DNA of 22,109 nt. Origin: a virus. Below the pieces are notes generated by a model, which was not told the origin of the DNA, did no database searches, and saw nothing but the letters and a program-made list of their open reading frames with translations. The stretch spans positions 1 to 22,109 of the IMG/VR virus record IMGVR_UViG_3300037069_002115; one strand, written 5' to 3'. Shown here piece by piece: positions 11,939 to 21,727 of the stretch. The translations under genes and the position numbers were made by a program. How positions within the stretch are numbered: the stretch's first letter is position 1; every line of letters starts with the position of its first letter.

Positions 11939-12359
11939 TATGGGAGCAATTATTGACTACGTGGATTTGATAGGCGTAAAATTCGCCTACGGCGGTCGTG
12001 GTCCGGACTCCTACGATTGCCTGGGCCTGGTCATGGAATGTCACCGCCGCCTTGGCATGGATATTCCTGACTATCGCTCGCCGACGATCCTGGCCGAGAT
12101 CGCCCTGCTGATCGCCCAGGAGCGCGAGAAGTGGACCCTTATCGCCAGGAAGACGCCTGGGGCCGAGCCAATCTCTTCGACCCATCTCACTCCCGGCAGA
12201 ACGATAGAACTCAGAATTCAGGGGCTCGCTTGCCACATAGGTTTCATTCATCGGAAGCGCCGTTTCATTCATGCCTCTGAAGGTACGAACAGCGTTGTCG
12301 ATGAACAACTTTATGACTGGCGAGATCGCATCGTAGGTGTCTATGAATTCGCTGGCTGA
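11931..12359 (+). CDS. NlpC/P60 peptidase, lambda gpK-like tip protein
   Basis: A 142-residue NlpC/P60-type cysteine peptidase of the tail tip. Counting from ATG 11931, the catalytic Cys30 sits in Y-D-C-L-G-L-V-M, His102 in C-H-I-G-F-I-H, and the third polar residue is probably His114 in F-I-H-A-S-E-G, the classical C/H/H order. Lambda gpK has the same domain and is used in tip assembly or cell wall passage; only the peptidase domain is present here, without the N-terminal JAB part of gpK. The gene overlaps the gpL-like stop by eight bases. The start could also be ATG 11940 (139 residues); TTG 11895 is possible but far inside gpL. It is AT-richer than its neighbours. Confidence 0.85.
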   Translation: MDSMGAIIDYVDLIGVKFAYGGRGPDSYDCLGLVMECHRRLGMDIPDYRSPTILAEIALLIAQEREKWTLIARKTPGAEPISSTHLTPGRTIELRIQGLACHIGFIHRKRRFIHASEGTNSVVDEQLYDWRDRIVGVYEFAG

Positions 12360-15300
12360 ATACTACGATGCAGACGTGAGCGAGCCGTTCCTTCGGCTCT
12401 CTATCGTCTACAACCCCTTTATGATGAACGAGATCGCGGTCGAAGAACTAATCTTCGATCCTGCGAAGACGCTCGCCGACTACCTCAAGGGACTCCCAGA
12501 GGAAGTCGAGTGGATCGTCGGCTACGACGGAAAGGCGATCGAGAAGGAGGAGTGGGCCTCGATCACGCCGGAAGAGTATTCCACAATCTCGCTGGTCCGC
12601 GTCCCCGAGGGCGGCCATGGCGCTAAAGGCATCCTTCGAATAGTCGCCATGCTGGCGGTTATCGCGATCGCCGCCTTCGTCGCCCCATACCTGGCCGGTG
12701 CGCTCGCCGGAGCGATGGGCGGCGTCAGCGCCGGCGTGATGGCGGGGATGATCGCGGGCATCACTGGCGCAATCACCATGGTCGGGGCGCTGATCATCAA
12801 CGCCCTTCTGCCGGGCACGTCCAATAAGCCCGAATCTCCTAGCTACGGCGACGACGGACCTAAGAACACCGCCAAAGAGGGCCTGCCGATCCCGAAGGTC
12901 TATGGGAAGTTCCGGGTCGGCGGACAGATCACGGACCTCTTCTCGAAGAACCTTGGCACCACCCGCACGATCGACAACGTTCAGGTGCCTGCCAGCCAAT
13001 ATATGTTTTGCCGCGCCGTCCTGAACGACGGCCCAGTTTCGAACATTCAGGACATCGAGATCAACGGCAACCCCATCACAACGTTCAATGACGTGGAGTT
13101 CCGGGTCTACCACGGCGACAATCCCGCCACTCCCAACGATTGGTTCGATGAAGCCATTCGTCTGATTAACATCAATCAGAAGATATTCGTCGCGCCGATC
13201 ATCTACGAGACCGACGGCCCCGTCGATCGCCTGCGCGCCGACATCGTATTCCCCGGTGGCCTCTATTTCGCCAAGTCCGACGGTAGCCGGGTCTCCCAGA
13301 CCGTCACCTTCGTCCTGAAATACCAGCCGATTGATTCCCTGGGCAACCCGACGGGGCCGCTTCAACCCCTGCCGCTCAGCACCGGAACCCCGCTCACGAA
13401 CGGAACATCGCCGACCGACGGGGCGACGAACGTCTGGACGACAGACCCCAACGCCACCGGCGCGACCTTTCAGTTTCAGACCGGCGATATGGGGATCAAC
13501 ACTGGGCGGTATAGTTCATACCTGGAATACCGAAAGTTCGGCGACATCAACTGGAGCGATGGCCCTATCTATCAGGGCGGCCAATCCCAGTCCTACACGG
13601 GCGCGAACCCGACCGAACTGACGTGGCCGCTGATAAACATAAACATGAGCTTTACGGAGGCGGGACTTTACGAGGTTCGCGCACCCACCGCTGTCATCGG
13701 CGATATTCTTTCCGACTCCTACATCCCGTATTCAAACACGGTTGCAATCGCGACCACTCAGCTAACCGTCACTGATACGACGACCGTCGCCAAACGCATC
13801 ACCTATGAGAGTGGACGGCTCCCCAACAGCCGCTATTCCATCCAGATCAGCCGCACCGTCAACTCGGAAGTTGGAACCAAGAGCTATACCGAGGCGTGGC
13901 TTTCCGATGTTGGCGAAATCAACGTCCAGAACGTTAACCTGAATGGCATCGCTCATATCGATGTAAAGATCAGGGTCGATAACCAATTGTCTTCGGTGCC
14001 GAGTATAACGGCTCTCGTCACCGGCTCGACGATGACCGTTTATGACGATCAGGGCAATGCAACCCCGAACACATATTCGAACAATCCAGCCGACATCGTC
14101 ATAGACATTCTGACCAATAACATTCAGGGAGACGCCTACGACGCATCGAAGATAATATACCCGTCGTTTGCCGATTTCCGCGATTTTTGCACGGCGAACA
14201 GCTTCTTCTTCAACGGCGTTTTCGATCAGGTCCAGACCGTCTGGGACTGCGTGCAGCAAGTCGCCAAGGTCGGTCGCGGCATGGTTGTGCCAAAGGGCAC
14301 CAGGTTCGCCGCGATCTACGATGCGCCGGCCAACCCGGTGCAGATGTTCGGCCCCGGCAACATCGTCAAGGACTCCTTCCAAAAAACCTGGGTCAGCCTC
14401 AACGATCGCGCCAACGAAATCCAGGTTACATTCGCCGACGCCAATAACCTCTACCAGGTGAAAACCCTCCGAACTACCGACGACCAGGCGCTTGCCCAGG
14501 GTGATCGGCTCAAGACTACCAATATCGACGGCTTTGGCATGACCAACCTCGATCAGGTGAGGGCCTTCGCCGACTACAGCGCCAAGCAAAACGCCTACAT
14601 CACCGATTTCATCACCTTCGATGCGCCGCTTGAGTCGATCAGCATGGACCTGGGCGACGTAGCGCTCATTCAGCACGACTCCATCGATTTCACCGAAGGG
14701 GTCTCAGGCCGCCTCGCCGCCGGTTCGACCACGACCGTCATCAAGCTCGATCGACCGGCGACCATGACGGCCGGCAACACCTATTCGCTGCTCGTCATCC
14801 ACGACACGATTCAGCGATACTCGGGAACGATCGCCAGCATCACGAGCAACAAGCTCAACGTTACAGGCTTGCCGGCGGCCCCACTAAACAACATCACCCG
14901 GCTCCAGCAGGGCGGCTACGACATCGACGTCTACCGCGTCACCGCCGGCCCGAATGGAAGCTACTACATCAGCGTCGATGATGCCTCCCATTTGACGACC
15001 GGCGCGATCACGCTCTGGGATACCGACGTTATTGAAGAACAGACCGTCGTCTTCTCGGCCGGAACGTCGGAAACCGTCACCGTCGCCGCCCCGTTCTCCT
15101 GGGCACCGGCGCAATATGCAAACTTCATGTTCGGCCAGGTTGCTACCGTTCAGCTTCCATACCGCTTGCGAAACATATCCGGGGATGGGGTCCATCGCCG
15201 GACGCTGGGCTTCACCAGATACGACGCCAACGCCTACCTTCCCGGCGACTGGTCGACGATCGTCATCGAGAACTCCGGGATCACGTTCAACGTGGCCCAG

Positions 15301-18300
15301 GTCACGGCGCTATCGGCTGACTACGACCCCAATCCGCTCCCGACCCAGGAAACCATTCCGGTTCTGATCTCTTGGCTTTCACCAGGGGTCGGCAGCTACG
15401 GCGGCGCGGATGTGTGGGCCTCGCTCGACGATGGAGTCACGTTCCAGTTTCTCCAGACCGTCCAGAATGTCACTCAGCTTCAATGGCATTTTCAGCGCAA
15501 CCAGGCGCTCATTTTCCGGGTTGTCGCGTTCGACCTCTTCGGCAATAGGGCTCGGGTCGCCGACGCTCCGACCACTGAAGTCGCGCTGGCTCCGAGCGAT
15601 GTTCGTATCGACCCCCCGACAAACCTCGCCTTTACCGTTCCCTATTGGCGGGTTGACGCCGCCGCCACCGTAACGTGGTCCACTCCTGCGGACGGCCTGG
15701 CTCTCGCCTACGAAGTAAGTTGGCAGGCCCTTAACTCGACTGACTACGCCGCCCTCCAGACCTGGTGCGGCTACGGCATTGGCATCACGACCACGCAGAA
15801 CACCGCCCCAACATCGCCCAGCGTCGGCGACATCTGGGTGGACGATACGACCTCACCCAGCACGGTTACGAAATGGAGTGGCTCGGCGTGGGTAGGCTTG
15901 CCGACGAATGTTCTCGCCGAGTCCTCCTACAGCGCCAACGCCCAGATGACCGTCGACTTCGACGTGATCCCGCGCCTTGTCGCGGCGGATTACGTCGTGC
16001 GCGTCCGATCGGTCCGAGGCTACGCCAGATCGCTGTGGAGCTATCTGCCAATGCAGATCGCGGTGCCCACCATGCCGGCGAATATCACCGGCCTGAAGTG
16101 CGAGAACGGCACCGCAGACGCCGCCAGTTCGACCTTCGCCAGCCAGGATGTCCACTTCACCTGGACCGACATCATGGCGAGCCTGTCGGGAACGACGGAC
16201 CAATATGGTGCGCCGTTCTACTTCCAGGACTACCAGGTCAACATCCTCACCCCCGGCGGGACGCTCCTTCGAACCGAGTATGTGACTTCGCCGGCCTACG
16301 TCTACACCTTCAACAAGAACACCCAGGACAACGGCGGGACGCCGATCAAGTCCTTCGTCATCACGGTCTACTTCCGGGGCAAACAGGGTCAGCTTTCAGC
16401 CTCGCATAGCATGACCTGCACGGCGGTATCGCCGCCTACGCCGGTCAACGTCATCACTACTCTCGCTGGCGGCGGCTTCACGCTCGCTTTGCCGCCATGC
16501 CCGCCCCCAGGCTGCGCTGGCATCTTGATCTGGACCTCGCTCACCAGCGGCATCAATCCGATCACCCAGACCCCCTCCTTTGATGGCGGTCCTGGCAACA
16601 GCTTCTATGTCGTCGCCACAGCTAATCAGCTAGTTTATTACCGGGCCGCCTACTATGGCTGGTACGACAAGACTCCCGCTGATCTTAACATCATCGCCGA
16701 AGAGTCGATCACCGTTGCCGGGCTCCTCGCAAGTCAGATCGGGGGTCTAGGCCCATGGGGTCTGGTCAATGTCACCCCTGGAACGACAGCCCCTGGCTCC
16801 CCTGCTGCCGGCGACATCTGGCTAGATTCGTCGGGTGAATCCTACGCCATGCGGCGTTGGGATGGCGGCTTTTGGCAACCCTTCTCGCGAACGGCCACTA
16901 GCCAACTTGTGGATGACGCGAACCTCGGAGGCACCGCCGGATGGACGGGCGTCTCCTCGATCCCCGCTGGGGTGACGGGCGCTGCGACGGGCTTCAACGG
17001 GTCGGGCATCCTTCAAACAGACATCCCTACGTCGCTCGCCAATGCCTCTAGTCTCCTTCGTTATGCCAGCGGTGGTCTCTTCAATGGTGAGCTTACTGCC
17101 GACACAACTATCAATCACGTCTCTGCATCGATCACTGGGCAGCAAGCCTGGGCGACCGCCAAAATAAGCGTGGCGACGACGGCCCCGTCATCGCCAGCGA
17201 CCGGCGATATCTGGATCAACACGACCACGACGCCCAGTGTCTTCAATCGTTGGAATGGGACCGCGTGGATTTCTTCGACGGTCACGAACACAAACCAGAT
17301 CATCGATGGCGCGAACCTCGGCGGGACGGCGGCTTGGGCCGGCGTCTCCTCAATTCCTGGCGGCGTCACTGGTGCCGCGACCGGTTTCAACTCGTCTGGC
17401 ATCCTGCAAACGAATATCCCATCAGCGCTCGCTAATACGTCAAACCTTCTTCGCTATGCCAGTGGAGGACTATTCAGCGGAGAGTTGACCGCAGATACCA
17501 CGATCAATCACATCTCTGCATCGATCACGGGTCAGCAAGCGTGGGCGACAGCAAAGGTGAGTGTGGCGACGACTGCGCCATCGTCCCCGGCGACCGGCGA
17601 TATTTGGATCAACACGACCACGACGCCCAGTGTTTTCAATCGCTGGAATGGCAGCGCCTGGAGCGCCTCCACCGTCACCAACACTAACCAGATCACCGAT
17701 GGCGCGAACCTCGGTGGCACCGCCGCCTGGACTGGGGTGACTTCAAGGCCCGCGAACCTTTCCGCTTTGGGCGGCACCGAACCCATTCAGAACGCCCTCG
17801 TGCCGATGGGCGCGAACATGCTCACCGATAGTGAGTTCATCCGGGCTCCATCTGGAACCGGCGCGACGAATAACGTTCTCTTCTGGAATCACGTCGGCAA
17901 CAACAACACCGGCCTGGCGCTAAGCTGGGGCGTCAACTATAACGACGGCAGCGCCTACTATAACAACAACCAAAGGGTGTTCTTCGCTTTCGCGAACGGA
18001 ACGCCCGCCGCCGGCTCGTTCTTCCAGGTGCGGCCGACCACCATGCTCGGCGCGGTCATAGCGCCATTCGCCTGCCAGCCCGGCGACAGGTTCTTCTTCT
18101 CGATGCAGATCGCCACCTACCGAAGCGGAGTTTCTGCCGGCGTCGACTGGGCGGCCTACGACGGCACCTCCGCTGGCGGCGGCGGGACCTTCGCCACGGC
18201 GACTACCGACATGAATACCGGGGCGGTAAATTGGGCCAGCTTCCAGACGATCAGCGGCTTCCTGACCGTTCCCGCCGACGGAAACCTGAGCAAGAACGTC

Positions 18301-19287
18301 CGGGGCTTCAGTCTGTGGATTAGCTGTGGAGCGGACGCGAGCCAGACCGCCAATCCGTTCTTCTTCATGGCCCAGCCGATGCTCTGCAAGGTGCCGTCGG
18401 GCCAGACTGCGGTTACGCCCTATTCGCCAGGCCATGGCGACCCCGCCGCGATGGTCGACCCCTCGTCCAACCAGTTCCTCGGAACCGGCTCAGTTCCGCC
18501 AACAGTTCCCGGCGGGGCGTTCAGCTATACCTGCAACACGTCATCTGTAACCATTTCTTGGTCAGCCATGACGTTGTACCGGATCGATGGCACAACCATA
18601 TCAGTGACTTCCGGGAGCCTGACGATCAGCAGCCTATCTTCAGGCACATCGTACAAGATATACCCCTATTGCGTAGACACTGGTGGGACTTCTAGTACGG
18701 TCAGCTTCGCCACGGGGGCCAGCGGCGGAACAGGCTCTCCAGCAGCGGCGTATTCCTACAATCCACCAACAACGTATGGAAGCGCCCCAGCCGCCGCTGT
18801 TTCTTATGCCAGAGGGGTCATCAACCTTAACAGCTTTATTGTGTCCACAACCACCAGTGGTACTGGCGGGGGTGGTGGCGGCGGTAGTTCGTGTATGCAC
18901 CCCTCGACCTTGATGATGGTGGAGGACGGCTTCGTCTGCGCCGACGATCTCCAGGTCGGTGATCTTATCAGTTCGCCCTCCGGCTTTGTGGCGATCAAGG
19001 CCATTCAACGCGAAGAGAAATCCCTTTGGATCGCTGTGCAGGTCGATGGTTACTTCAGCCAACGTGTGACGCCAGAACACCTTTTTTATAAGCCCGGCAT
19101 GAACCCGGTTGCAGCCTGTGATCTGCGGCTGGGCGACCTTCTCATGTCTGCTGGCGATCACGTTGAAGTGACGGGCCTGATCTACGACGACGAGCCCGCC
19201 GATCTCGTTGCAATCTCGGTTGACGACCCGCATCTCATTCACGTCGGTATTCCCAACCTCATTAGCCACAACAGTCCGAAGCTATGA
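12343..19287 (+). CDS. Tail tip attachment protein J (gpI+gpJ fusion) with C-terminal Hint domain
   Basis: A 2314-residue host-recognition hub protein. Residues 1-95 look like the ubiquitin-like half of lambda gpI and residues 97-158 are a hydrophobic Gly/Ala-rich membrane-like stretch, so gpI appears fused to gpJ. The gpJ body starts near residue 178 (PIPKVYGKFRVGGQI) and carries the N-E-I-Q-V-T-F type core to about 760. Fibronectin-III-like segments follow (about 1000-1350), then a 131-residue tandem repeat (from 1527), a jelly-roll-like domain (about 1826-2029), another FN3-like segment, a Gly linker and a Hint domain (2184-2310). ATG 12343 has AGGTG close upstream; GTG 12337 would add two residues. 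It overlaps gpK and the next gene. Confidence 0.93.
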   Translation: MNSLAEYYDADVSEPFLRLSIVYNPFMMNEIAVEELIFDPAKTLADYLKGLPEEVEWIVGYDGKAIEKEEWASITPEEYSTISLVRVPEGGHGAKGILRIVAMLAVIAIAAFVAPYLAGALAGAMGGVSAGVMAGMIAGITGAITMVGALIINALLPGTSNKPESPSYGDDGPKNTAKEGLPIPKVYGKFRVGGQITDLFSKNLGTTRTIDNVQVPASQYMFCRAVLNDGPVSNIQDIEINGNPITTFNDVEFRVYHGDNPATPNDWFDEAIRLININQKIFVAPIIYETDGPVDRLRADIVFPGGLYFAKSDGSRVSQTVTFVLKYQPIDSLGNPTGPLQPLPLSTGTPLTNGTSPTDGATNVWTTDPNATGATFQFQTGDMGINTGRYSSYLEYRKFGDINWSDGPIYQGGQSQSYTGANPTELTWPLININMSFTEAGLYEVRAPTAVIGDILSDSYIPYSNTVAIATTQLTVTDTTTVAKRITYESGRLPNSRYSIQISRTVNSEVGTKSYTEAWLSDVGEINVQNVNLNGIAHIDVKIRVDNQLSSVPSITALVTGSTMTVYDDQGNATPNTYSNNPADIVIDILTNNIQGDAYDASKIIYPSFADFRDFCTANSFFFNGVFDQVQTVWDCVQQVAKVGRGMVVPKGTRFAAIYDAPANPVQMFGPGNIVKDSFQKTWVSLNDRANEIQVTFADANNLYQVKTLRTTDDQALAQGDRLKTTNIDGFGMTNLDQVRAFADYSAKQNAYITDFITFDAPLESISMDLGDVALIQHDSIDFTEGVSGRLAAGSTTTVIKLDRPATMTAGNTYSLLVIHDTIQRYSGTIASITSNKLNVTGLPAAPLNNITRLQQGGYDIDVYRVTAGPNGSYYISVDDASHLTTGAITLWDTDVIEEQTVVFSAGTSETVTVAAPFSWAPAQYANFMFGQVATVQLPYRLRNISGDGVHRRTLGFTRYDANAYLPGDWSTIVIENSGITFNVAQVTALSADYDPNPLPTQETIPVLISWLSPGVGSYGGADVWASLDDGVTFQFLQTVQNVTQLQWHFQRNQALIFRVVAFDLFGNRARVADAPTTEVALAPSDVRIDPPTNLAFTVPYWRVDAAATVTWSTPADGLALAYEVSWQALNSTDYAALQTWCGYGIGITTTQNTAPTSPSVGDIWVDDTTSPSTVTKWSGSAWVGLPTNVLAESSYSANAQMTVDFDVIPRLVAADYVVRVRSVRGYARSLWSYLPMQIAVPTMPANITGLKCENGTADAASSTFASQDVHFTWTDIMASLSGTTDQYGAPFYFQDYQVNILTPGGTLLRTEYVTSPAYVYTFNKNTQDNGGTPIKSFVITVYFRGKQGQLSASHSMTCTAVSPPTPVNVITTLAGGGFTLALPPCPPPGCAGILIWTSLTSGINPITQTPSFDGGPGNSFYVVATANQLVYYRAAYYGWYDKTPADLNIIAEESITVAGLLASQIGGLGPWGLVNVTPGTTAPGSPAAGDIWLDSSGESYAMRRWDGGFWQPFSRTATSQLVDDANLGGTAGWTGVSSIPAGVTGAATGFNGSGILQTDIPTSLANASSLLRYASGGLFNGELTADTTINHVSASITGQQAWATAKISVATTAPSSPATGDIWINTTTTPSVFNRWNGTAWISSTVTNTNQIIDGANLGGTAAWAGVSSIPGGVTGAATGFNSSGILQTNIPSALANTSNLLRYASGGLFSGELTADTTINHISASITGQQAWATAKVSVATTAPSSPATGDIWINTTTTPSVFNRWNGSAWSASTVTNTNQITDGANLGGTAAWTGVTSRPANLSALGGTEPIQNALVPMGANMLTDSEFIRAPSGTGATNNVLFWNHVGNNNTGLALSWGVNYNDGSAYYNNNQRVFFAFANGTPAAGSFFQVRPTTMLGAVIAPFACQPGDRFFFSMQIATYRSGVSAGVDWAAYDGTSAGGGGTFATATTDMNTGAVNWASFQTISGFLTVPADGNLSKNVRGFSLWISCGADASQTANPFFFMAQPMLCKVPSGQTAVTPYSPGHGDPAAMVDPSSNQFLGTGSVPPTVPGGAFSYTCNTSSVTISWSAMTLYRIDGTTISVTSGSLTISSLSSGTSYKIYPYCVDTGGTSSTVSFATGASGGTGSPAAAYSYNPPTTYGSAPAAAVSYARGVINLNSFIVSTTTSGTGGGGGGGSSCMHPSTLMMVEDGFVCADDLQVGDLISSPSGFVAIKAIQREEKSLWIAVQVDGYFSQRVTPEHLFYKPGMNPVAACDLRLGDLLMSAGDHVEVTGLIYDDEPADLVAISVDDPHLIHVGIPNLISHNSPKL
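15799..17661 (+). repeat. Four copies of a GDIW...W motif in gpJ
   Basis: The pattern TAP-x-SP-x-x-GDIW, about ten variable residues, then (K/R)W-x-G-x-x-W occurs at 15799-15891, 16783-16876, 17176-17268 and 17569-17661. The last two are part of the 393-base tandem unit; the first two are scattered and diverged. The conserved Trp and Asp suggest a small ligand-binding or structural beta module. Confidence 0.85.
16921..17786 (+). repeat. Tandem 393-base (131-residue) repeat in gpJ
   Basis: Copy 1 spans 16921-17313, copy 2 spans 17314-17706, and a broken third copy begins at 17707 and fades after about 16 residues. Landmarks are N-L-G-G-T-A at each start (16921, 17314, 17707; spacing exactly 393), then TGAATGFN, LRYASGGLF, ELTADTTINH, ITGQQAWATAK and the GDIW motif. 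The copies differ at many third codon positions yet keep the protein, so the duplication is not recent and is under selection. The two-unit shaft would lengthen the tip fibre. Confidence 0.9.
18892..19272 (+). other. Hint (intein-like, BIL-type) domain within gpJ
   Basis: This 127-residue segment begins with Cys2184 behind a run of seven Gly and two Ser and carries the Hint blocks in order: block A C-M-H-P-S-T-L-M-M-V-E-D-G-F, L-Q-V-G-D-L; block B V-T-P-E-H with the TxxH pair (Thr2243, His2246); R-L-G-D-L; block F L-V-A-I-S-V-D-D-P-H-L-I-H-V; and block G N-L-I-S-H-N with His2309-Asn2310 followed by Ser2311. There is no endonuclease insert. Only SPKL remains behind it. Splicing or cleavage competence is inferred from these residues. 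Confidence 0.9.
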
Positions 19288-19589
19288 AGCGGTATTTCAT
19301 CGTCCCTGACGCTAGCATGGTCTGGACCTCCCCGATCGGGGTTTGGCACAGCGTGGACCTGGGCAGCCATGGGCCGAAGGGCGCGGGGTATCATGTCGTG
19401 TGCCTGGAAGGACAAATGGGCGCTCCACCGGACGGATGGGTTCCGATGCCCAACCTGGCCGATCCCAAGACTCCGCTAAAGAACAAGGTTGATCACCTGC
19501 TCCTTGCCGACGTGGGCATCACTGGCGAGGAGACGATGTATGAAGCAGCGGAGAAGCTTGGGGAAAAACACCACATGCTGACCCCGTAG
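19284..19589 (+). CDS. Hypothetical protein behind gpJ
   Basis: A 101-residue protein that I do not recognise. It has no signal peptide or membrane segment. It is Pro/Gly/Trp-rich in the middle (GAPPDGWVPMPNLADPKTP) and ends in a helix (MYEAAEKLGEKHHML). Its ATG overlaps the last codon and stop of gpJ (ATGA), so it is coupled to the translation of the Hint domain. Its position resembles those of small tip or fibre-assembly genes found after gpJ in many phages. It precedes the gap with promoter D. Confidence 0.65.
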   Translation: MKRYFIVPDASMVWTSPIGVWHSVDLGSHGPKGAGYHVVCLEGQMGAPPDGWVPMPNLADPKTPLKNKVDHLLLADVGITGEETMYEAAEKLGEKHHMLTP

Positions 19590-19593
19590 CCCA

Positions 19594-19622
19594 TTGACAG
19601 CCTAATTCGGCCTCGATAAATA
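19594..19622 (+). promoter_or_regulatory. Predicted promoter D for the methyltransferase block
   Basis: TTGACA (19594-19599), 17 bases, TAAATA (19617-19622), predicted start about 19629, then AGGAG (19632-19636) and ATG 19646. An inverted repeat, ATAGTC (19620-19625) and GACTAT (19636-19641), overlaps the -10 and the last base of the Shine-Dalgarno. It is the best-looking of the non-lysis promoters in this window. Confidence 0.55.
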
Positions 19623-20334: not shown

Positions 20335-20922
20335 GTGGTCTGGGACGCGCTCCCAGAAGGCACCTTCGACGTCATTGTTGCCGACCCGCCCTGGTCCTAC
20401 TACGGCCAGCAGGGCAAGTGGGGCGCAGCGGCGAAGTTTTACCCTACCGTAGCTGACGCCGCTGTCGTCTCGCTCCCGATTGAGCAACTGCTCCGCGAGA
20501 CGGGAATCCTCTTCCTTTGGGCCACGTCGCCCAGGCTCGATGCCGCCATGGAGTGCCTGAAAGCTTGGAAGCTCAGCTTCCGGGGAGTCGCCTTCGTCTG
20601 GGTCAAGTCGCGCAAGGACGGCCAGCCGATCGGAGCCCAAGGGGTTCGACCATCGATCGTGAAGCCTACCGCCGAATATGTCCTGGCGGCCAGCCGCGTC
20701 TCCAAGGGCCGCCCGATGAAGCTCCACGACGAAAGCATCCCCAACGTGGTCCTCGCGACCAGGCGCGAACACTCGCGCAAGCCCGACGCCATCCAGGACC
20801 ACATCGAGCGCATGTATCCCCAGAGCGCCAAGCTGGAATTGTTCGCGCGCACCCAACGTCCGGGATGGACCTCTTGGGGCAATCAAACCGACCAATTTTC
20901 CAGTCTAGTTAGTCACGAATAA
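20335..20922 (+). CDS. MT-A70 family DNA adenine N6-methyltransferase
   Basis: A 195-residue methyltransferase that would transfer a methyl group from S-adenosylmethionine to adenine N6. The catalytic motif is DPPW at residues 17-20 (V-I-V-A-D-P-P-W-S-Y), near the N-terminus as in small MT-A70 proteins; L-F-L-W-A-T (about 60-65), F-V-W-V-K (about 85-89), the T-A-E-Y-V-L-A segment (about 110-117) and H-S-x-K-P (RREHSRKPD, about 142-150) complete the family pattern. The GTG start directly abuts the previous stop. The usual role in phages is self-modification against host restriction; target sequence unknown. It stands between tail and lysis genes, without a partner endonuclease, so it is an orphan modification enzyme. 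Confidence 0.93.
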   Translation: MVWDALPEGTFDVIVADPPWSYYGQQGKWGAAAKFYPTVADAAVVSLPIEQLLRETGILFLWATSPRLDAAMECLKAWKLSFRGVAFVWVKSRKDGQPIGAQGVRPSIVKPTAEYVLAASRVSKGRPMKLHDESIPNVVLATRREHSRKPDAIQDHIERMYPQSAKLELFARTQRPGWTSWGNQTDQFSSLVSHE

Positions 20923-21370: not shown

Positions 21371-21727
21371 TTGTGGACTTACAAACAAAGCACGGGTGAA
21401 CTGTCACTGGACGGCAAGGTTGTCGGCTGCGGATATTCCGGGCACGAGAACGGCGTCAATAACCCCGCCCTGGAAGCTGACCCCGGCATTGGCCCCATCC
21501 CACGCGGTCACTGGACCATCGGGCCGGCACACTCTTCGCCCCACACTGGGCCGCTGACGATGAACCTCGATCCGGTTGGCTTCGATCCGCACGGCCGAAG
21601 CCTCTTCCGTCTACATGGTGACAACAGCGCGGACAACGAGTCCGCCTCGCGCGGTTGCATCATCATGGACCGGGTGATCCGGGAGAAGGTCGCGGAAAGC
21701 GCCGACCGAACCCTGGAGGTGGTCTGA
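21371..21727 (+). CDS. DUF2778 / Tlde1-type L,D-transpeptidase-fold protein, candidate endolysin
   Basis: A 118-residue protein that begins M-W-T-Y-K-Q-S-T-G-E-L-S-L-D-G as DUF2778/Tlde1 proteins do, with the N-N-P segment (about 30-32), G-P-I-P-R-G (41-46), and the catalytic block L-H-G-D (His82) and S-A-S-R-G-C-I-I (Cys96), the H...SxGC pattern of L,D-transpeptidases. Members of this family cut or exchange peptidoglycan peptide stems; the place between two small membrane proteins makes it the likely phage lysis enzyme. There is no signal peptide, so it needs a holin or partner to reach the wall. It starts at TTG 21371, since the next in-frame ATG would lose the conserved beginning. Confidence 0.88.
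   Translation: MWTYKQSTGELSLDGKVVGCGYSGHENGVNNPALEADPGIGPIPRGHWTIGPAHSSPHTGPLTMNLDPVGFDPHGRSLFRLHGDNSADNESASRGCIIMDRVIREKVAESADRTLEVV

What the first reader, a model, noticed from the sequence alone, without database searches (positions are those of the whole stretch)
18892..19287. Tail-tip protein gpJ ends in a complete Hint/intein-like domain
The segment has the conserved blocks of Hint domains in order: first residue Cys2184, TxxH (Thr2243/His2246), the D-D-P-H-L-I-H-V type block F, and terminal His2309-Asn2310 with Ser2311 as the +1 nucleophile. It is 127 residues long with no endonuclease insert, so it is closer to bacterial intein-like (BIL) domains than to a mobile intein. It follows a seven-Gly linker and leaves only SPKL behind it. 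Possible outcomes, all inferred: excision with ligation of SPKL; cleavage that trims gpJ during tail maturation; or a thioester that links the receptor-binding tip to a partner or to the host surface. An intein in the usual sense would interrupt a conserved site; here it caps the terminus of a fast-evolving receptor-binding protein, which argues for a function in processing or attachment.
Basis: partly seen in the sequence, partly recalled or inferred. Interest (0 to 1): 0.85.

Follow-up and report, generated by a model that had tools for sequence, protein, structure and literature searches.

The report
Self-processing Hint cap on phage tail tip
The tip protein of this phage's tail ends in an intein-like self-cutting domain, and a survey of many phages shows that such end-caps are common and almost always followed by a short lysine-containing tail, which suggests that the domain removes itself and joins the tail protein to that lysine, as an intein-like domain of a ciliate is known to do.

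Summary
Confirmed. gpJ (12337-19287) ends in a complete 127-residue Hint domain, Cys2186 to Asn2312, behind seven glycines and before the tail SPKL. A profile built without the window finds it end to end (E 6.5e-8). A structure model (pLDDT 91) matches BIL domain 2lwy at Z 20.4, 1.4 A over 128 residues. None of 70 gpJ relatives with a complete 3' end has it.

It is one of a wide class: Gly-rich linker, Hint with HN, short variable tail, on phage tail and fibre proteins, including other gpJs (L153, L199, L217) and cultured phages (Alexandra, AD1, fHe-Yen9-02, NCTB). The tail nearly always carries lysine: 42 of 43 clusters (16 expected), 67 of 68 distinct tails. Five clusters unseen when I predicted this all had it.

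Best explanation (inferred): thioester at Ser2185-Cys2186, attack by the tail lysine, then Asn cyclisation, giving an isopeptide-capped gpJ. A ciliate BIL domain, BUBL1 BIL2, is reported to work this way. Plain autocleavage is the main rival. No biochemistry was possible. I found no paper on Hint caps of tail-tip proteins in the open library.

The parts
12337..19287 (+). gpJ, tail-tip / host-specificity protein, 2316 aa (GTG start)
18865..18885 (+). seven-glycine linker before the Hint domain
   Evidence: Gly-rich linkers precede most related Hints, also in loci found without a Gly criterion
18892..19272 (+). Hint domain, Cys2186-Asn2312, 127 aa
18892..18894 (+). Cys2186, predicted N-S acyl shift residue (block A)
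   Evidence: invariant in alignment A5; present in all loci of the block-A-free search that hold this position
19069..19080 (+). TPEH, block B (Thr2245, His2248)
   Evidence: His invariant and Thr at least 90% in A5
19267..19272 (+). His2311-Asn2312, block G (Asn cyclisation)
19273..19284 (+). C-terminal tail Ser-Pro-Lys-Leu; Lys2315 (19279-19281) is the proposed nucleophile
   Evidence: Lys in tails of 42 of 43 clusters of related Hints

Best explanation
The end of gpJ is an active, BIL-like Hint domain used as a self-removing cap. Proposed steps: (1) N-S acyl shift at Ser2185-Cys2186, helped by TPEH, makes a thioester at the end of the flexible Gly7-Ser2 linker; (2) the side-chain amine of the tail lysine (Lys2315 in SPKL, in cis or from a neighbouring subunit) attacks the thioester in place of the +1 Cys/Ser/Thr of inteins; (3) Asn2312 cyclises, releasing the Hint. 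The product would be gpJ whose C-terminus is joined by an isopeptide bond to the short lysine peptide. Shown: domain, fold, active-site residues, architecture, rarity of a +1 nucleophile across relatives, near-universal tail lysine. Inferred: every chemical step, when it occurs, and what the capped product does for the tail tip. My confidence in parts: Hint domain about 0.98; chemically active about 0.85; lysine as the acyl acceptor about 0.5.
For: Fold and residues. Cys1 is kept in all of the relatives fetched by a search that did not use block A and that hold this position, and HN in nearly all. Lysine: 34 of 35 discovery clusters against 9.9 expected from other C-termini; the prediction was written down and two more scans run, after which all 5 clusters not seen before had it (L402, L403, L410, L414, L417). 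With 2432 non-overlapping control genes: 42 of 43 against 16.0 expected, none of 200,000 simulations reached it. With windows of the same proteins as control: 36 of 38 against 7.0. Within clusters the tails diverge while Lys stays: SEQVKE/ALAIKE/VEQTDKF, LSAKT/FSEKT/YSDKQIPD. Cultured phages read afterwards: VDLVSKAEKN, KVD, APVDQKH. Lysine was no search criterion. Precedent: BUBL1 BIL2 makes a Lys isopeptide bond (PMC8616854), and is among the top fold matches.
Against: No direct biochemistry. The window's own tail has Ser at +1, so ordinary splicing is not excluded for this one protein, and Lys in a 4-residue C-terminus occurs by chance in 24% of control genes. The lysine sits anywhere from +1 to +10, so its geometry is loose. 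One C-terminal cluster lacks it (L118, QLHQHDYN). The benefit of attaching a short peptide is unclear. Three of the 8 'new' clusters had been displayed earlier. No close relative of this exact protein was found.
Confidence: 0.5

Rival explanations
1. Plain BIL-type autocleavage: thioester hydrolysis at Cys2186 and Asn cyclisation trim the Hint off gpJ during or after tail assembly, with the lysine serving another role.
For: A-type BILs are described as lacking a +1 nucleophile and giving mainly cleaved products (PMC7664689, PMC7765530). +1 is rarely C/S/T here.
Against: Does not explain why lysine is kept in 42 of 43 tail clusters when only a discarded peptide would carry it.
Confidence: 0.25
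2. The thioester is attacked in trans by a lysine or other amine elsewhere: a tail lysine of the neighbouring gpJ subunit, another virion protein or the host surface, so that the tip becomes cross-linked.
For: BUBL1 BIL2 conjugates its ubiquitin-like domain to different substrates (PMC8616854). A second Hint-like class without HN exists on similar proteins, for which only chemistry at the N-terminal junction would be possible.
Against: No partner is indicated; the next gene (19284-19589) has no relative in the fetched loci. HN conservation suggests that the downstream junction is cut as well.
Confidence: 0.12
3. Canonical splicing through Ser2313, joining SPKL to the linker by a normal peptide bond.
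For: Ser at +1 and all catalytic residues are present.
Against: +1 is not kept in the class, close relatives vary S/A/V, the C-extein is four residues, and the block F Asp of inteins is Ala here.
Confidence: 0.07
4. A catalytically idle structural end-cap, or the relic of an intein.
For: No activity has been shown.
Against: Cys1, block B His, HN and the tail lysine are kept across Hints that share only about 16-26% identity with the window.
Confidence: 0.06

Closest known systems
Bacterial intein-like domain of Clostridium thermocellum (PDB 2lwy)
   Same: Best sequence match among solved structures (E 1.8e-5) and joint best fold match (Z 20.4); similar size, same active-site blocks.
   Different: Not on a phage tail protein. 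BILs are described as lacking a +1 nucleophile; the window has Ser there.
BUBL1 BIL2 of Tetrahymena (PDB 6y75, 6tmm)
   Same: Hint domain reported to transfer its N-extein to a lysine amine downstream, without ATP (PMC8616854); fold Z 18.9. The mechanism proposed here is the same in kind.
   Different: Flanked by ubiquitin-like domains in a ciliate; here a phage tail tip with a 4-residue tail. Activity not shown here.
Tail proteins of cultured jumbo phages: Erwinia phage Alexandra gp114, Dickeya phage AD1 gp108, Yersinia phage fHe-Yen9-02 gp333; also NCTB 'large intein domain protein'
   Same: C-terminal Hint with HN and a short lysine tail: TDIVAKAEKK, VDLVSKAEKN, APVDQKH, KVD.
   Different: Collagen-like (read for Alexandra) or other fibre proteins, not gpJ; little or no Gly linker in the Alexandra, AD1 and fHe-Yen9-02 proteins. 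Annotated only as hypothetical, tail, virion structural or intein domain protein.
gpJ proteins of IMG/VR contigs L153, L199, L217
   Same: gpJ ending in Gly linker, Hint, HN, then SEQVKE, ALAIKE, AAKP.
   Different: Hint domains differ strongly in sequence and are longer (151 aa in L153 and L199).
CdiA BIL domains and PT-HINT of polymorphic toxins
   Same: Pfam PT-HINT is the family matched; autoprocessing Hints in surface-delivered proteins (PMC4725963).
   Different: There a toxin domain follows the Hint; here only SPKL.

Membership tests
HINT (Hedgehog/intein) superfamily | Hint fold | tested here: met
   Model pLDDT 91; 2lwy Z 20.4, 1at0 Hedgehog Z 17.6
HINT (Hedgehog/intein) superfamily | Block A Cys/Ser/Thr, block B His, in order | tested here: met
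   Cys2186, Thr2245-x-x-His2248; invariant or nearly so in A5
Bacterial intein-like domain, A-type | C-terminal His-Asn | tested here: met
   His2311-Asn2312
Bacterial intein-like domain, A-type | No nucleophile (C/S/T) at +1 | tested here: not met
   Ser2313 in the window, although most relatives lack one; hence filed as BIL-like, not as A-type BIL
Bacterial intein-like domain, A-type | Sits in a variable, non-conserved part of its host protein | tested here: met
   C-terminus of gpJ; absent from 70 of 70 gpJ relatives with a complete 3' end
Mobile intein | Interrupts a conserved site with a functional C-extein | tested here: not met
   Only SPKL follows
Mobile intein | +1 Cys/Ser/Thr | tested here: met
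   Ser2313
Mobile intein | Splices | not testable with these tools
   Needs protein
Hedgehog Hog domain | Sterol-recognition region after Hint | tested here: not met
   Protein ends 4 residues after Hint
BUBL-type BIL (lysine acceptor) | Lysine downstream that accepts the N-extein as isopeptide | not testable with these tools
   Lysine present in the window and in 42 of 43 related clusters; the reaction itself is untested
BUBL-type BIL (lysine acceptor) | Flanked by ubiquitin-like domains | tested here: not met
   gpJ before, SPKL after

The most novel reading that the evidence does not exclude
A widespread family of phage-encoded Hint domains performs ATP-free, self-contained isopeptide ligation: the end of a tail-tip or fibre protein is transferred through a Gly-linker thioester to a lysine kept in a short C-terminal tail, in cis or between subunits. 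The lysine replaces the +1 nucleophile of inteins, and the reaction caps or cross-links virion proteins.
Probability: 0.4. Interest if true: 0.92.

Novelty: new variant of a known kind. Interest (0 to 1): 0.78.

Why it matters
Hint domains in phages are described in the papers I could read as mobile inteins in terminases, helicases and reductases. Here they form a recurrent end-cap of tail tips and fibres, with a conserved lysine tail that reads as an acceptor. If the lysine is the acceptor, phages use self-contained isopeptide chemistry on receptor-binding structures, a source of new protein-ligation tools and a directly testable maturation step. The prediction is simple: one lysine replacement and one mass-spectrum in a cultured phage or an E. 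coli construct would decide it.

Tried and rejected
Close relatives of this exact Hint or gpJ: none by peptide patterns in viral contigs; only weak toxin-type Hints in phages and plasmids. Single-sequence folding failed. The region before the linker showed no shared domain with other Hint proteins. The next gene (19284-19589) has no relative in the fetched loci, so no partner is claimed. N-terminal gpJ Hints had no match in cultured phages. Ordinary inteins and toxin-type Hints turned up by the consensus query (Microcystis DNA polymerase L091, Ruminococcus phages L004, L092) were set aside. A toxin role was considered and dropped: nothing but SPKL follows. Papers on Hint or inteins with tail-tip terms gave nothing relevant; the original BIL and BUBL papers were not held. 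Bias to note: most loci came from patterns that demand Cys1 and a Gly linker, so their frequency there proves nothing; only searches are free of it. The consensus query was written by me as a generic Hint, so its matches were judged only by what their own sequences show.

Full report
What is there. The window is a 22,109-base IMG/VR virus contig. ORF 12337-19287 codes for a 2316-aa gpJ (PHROG 31, E 3.7e-85; Phage-tail_3). Its last 131 residues are a 127-residue Hint domain plus SPKL, behind seven glycines and two serines.

Is it a real Hint. Alone the segment just passes Pfam's PT-HINT cut-off (27.9 against 27.7 bits) and finds BIL domain 2lwy in the PDB (E 1.8e-5). A profile built from 38 other Hints with the window left out finds it at E 6.5e-8 from its first to its last position. 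The structure model on alignment A5 has pLDDT 91.0 and pTM 0.81. Its best matches are the gp41-1 intein, 2lwy (Z 20.4, rmsd 1.4, 128 aligned) and other inteins; BUBL1 BIL2 reaches 18.9 and Hedgehog 17.6. Cys2186, TPEH and His-Asn align with the columns that are invariant or nearly so in A5. The block F position that is Asp in inteins (own knowledge, supported in general terms by PMC7765530) and Asn in most relatives is Ala here.

Is it part of gpJ in general. No. A gpJ alignment gave 80 viral loci; of all gpJ relatives with a complete 3' end, 0 of 70 carry a Hint. It is an accessory end-cap.

How common is the arrangement. Three placements occur: at the C-terminus with HN and a short tail; at the N-terminus of gpJ (L105, L127, L129 and others, PHROG 31 E below 1e-160) or inside a gpI-like tail assembly protein between glycine stretches (L100, L123); and a Hint-like C-terminus without HN. 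Other gpJs with a C-terminal Hint are L153 (2685 aa, PHROG 31 E 6e-108), L199 and L217. Searches by similarity, without the pattern, found the same end-cap in cultured phages: Alexandra and related Erwinia phages, Alcaligenes phage Afa-NA1, Dickeya phage AD1, Yersinia phage fHe-Yen9-02, and NCTB.

Are the catalytic residues kept for a reason. Most loci were fetched by a pattern that demands Cys1, so I ran a search with the Hint minus block A. In its 23 loci the Cys is present wherever the sequence reaches it, and HN in nearly all. The Gly linker is also frequent there, though not universal.

The +1 residue. Inteins need C, S or T after Asn. In 31 clusters of C-terminal Hints the +1 residue is V5, L5, M4, I3, S3, A3, F2, K2, Q, P, Y, N; in the final set of 38 clusters 7 have S or T and none C. 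Close relatives change it freely (S, A, V in the L153 group). So Ser2313 of the window is not a class feature.

The lysine. What the tails share is lysine. In the discovery set 34 of 35 clusters have it (9.9 expected). I wrote the prediction down before two more scans; all 8 further clusters have it. Three of those 8 (L385, L388, L394) had been displayed before, so the honest count of unseen ones is 5 of 5. Against 2432 non-overlapping control genes the total is 42 of 43 with 16.0 expected; against windows of the same proteins 36 of 38 with 7.0 expected; 67 of 68 distinct tails have it. Arginine is not enriched (8, 17.6 expected), so this is not simply positive charge. Three further tails from cultured phages, read afterwards, have it too. 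Internal Hints have lysine at +1 in 18 of 36 clusters and within ten residues in 30 (14.1 expected). The position in C-terminal tails runs from +1 to +10.

Mechanism. BUBL1 BIL2, a Hint domain of a ciliate, is reported to form an isopeptide bond between its N-extein and a downstream lysine, without ATP (PMC8616854). The phage end-caps have the same elements: Cys1, block B His, HN, no regular +1 nucleophile, and a kept downstream lysine. I therefore propose lysine attack on the Cys thioester, followed by Asn cyclisation. For the window this gives gpJ ending in its glycine linker, joined to the side chain of Lys2315 of SPKL. Whether the lysine acts within one chain or between subunits cannot be told. 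Every chemical step is inferred. The window's tail alone proves little: 24% of control genes have a lysine in their last four residues. The case rests on the class.

What is known. Reviews describe A- and B-type BILs as cleaving domains in variable bacterial proteins (PMC7765530, PMC7664689, PMC5874633) and a BIL in CdiA of Pseudomonas as autocleaving (PMC4725963). Phage papers that mention Hint treat it as an intein of terminase and similar genes. I found no description of Hint caps on gpJ or of the tail lysine; the library lacks most subscription journals, so this is not proof of absence.

Verdict.

Noticed in passing
L105, L127, L129, L163, L173, L174 and others: Lambda-type gpJ proteins that carry a Hint domain at their N-terminus, between Gly-rich stretches; L173 has two in tandem. 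+1 is A, G, K, T or S.
   Followed up: partly
L100, L106, L112, L123, L143, L159: gpI-like tail assembly proteins with an internal Hint between glycine stretches, followed in all six by HN-GGGGK.
   Followed up: partly
L351, L364, L372: Bacterial proteins with tandem Hint domains joined by HNKGGGG-type linkers, reminiscent of the tandem arrangement of BUBL loci.
   Followed up: no
L104, L111, L114, L128, L137 and others: A second C-terminal Hint-like class on Gly-rich phage proteins that lacks HN and ends NVNILNA or NVNTLNAS; only N-terminal-junction chemistry would be possible.
   Followed up: no
L033:16559-17740 and 18430-19620: Two collagen-like fibre proteins of a phage with a related gpJ end in a Cys-rich stretch and a domain whose first part looks like Hint but without HN.
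   Followed up: no
L089 and L464: Alcaligenes phage Afa-NA1 and Salmonella phage Sen-NF share what reads as the same Hint-capped tail protein, although their stated hosts are very different.
   Followed up: no
window 20335-20922: MT-A70 type methyltransferase gene behind the tail genes (Pfam E 6e-30).
   Followed up: no
window 21371-21727: Protein with a Tlde1 domain (Pfam E 1.5e-12), possibly the lysis enzyme, next to a small protein with a hydrophobic C-terminal stretch.
   Followed up: no
window, C-terminal half of gpJ before the Hint (within 15800-18500): gpJ contains near-identical repeats (APSSPATGDIWINTTTTPSVFNRWNG and ANLGGTAAWTGV types).
   Followed up: no
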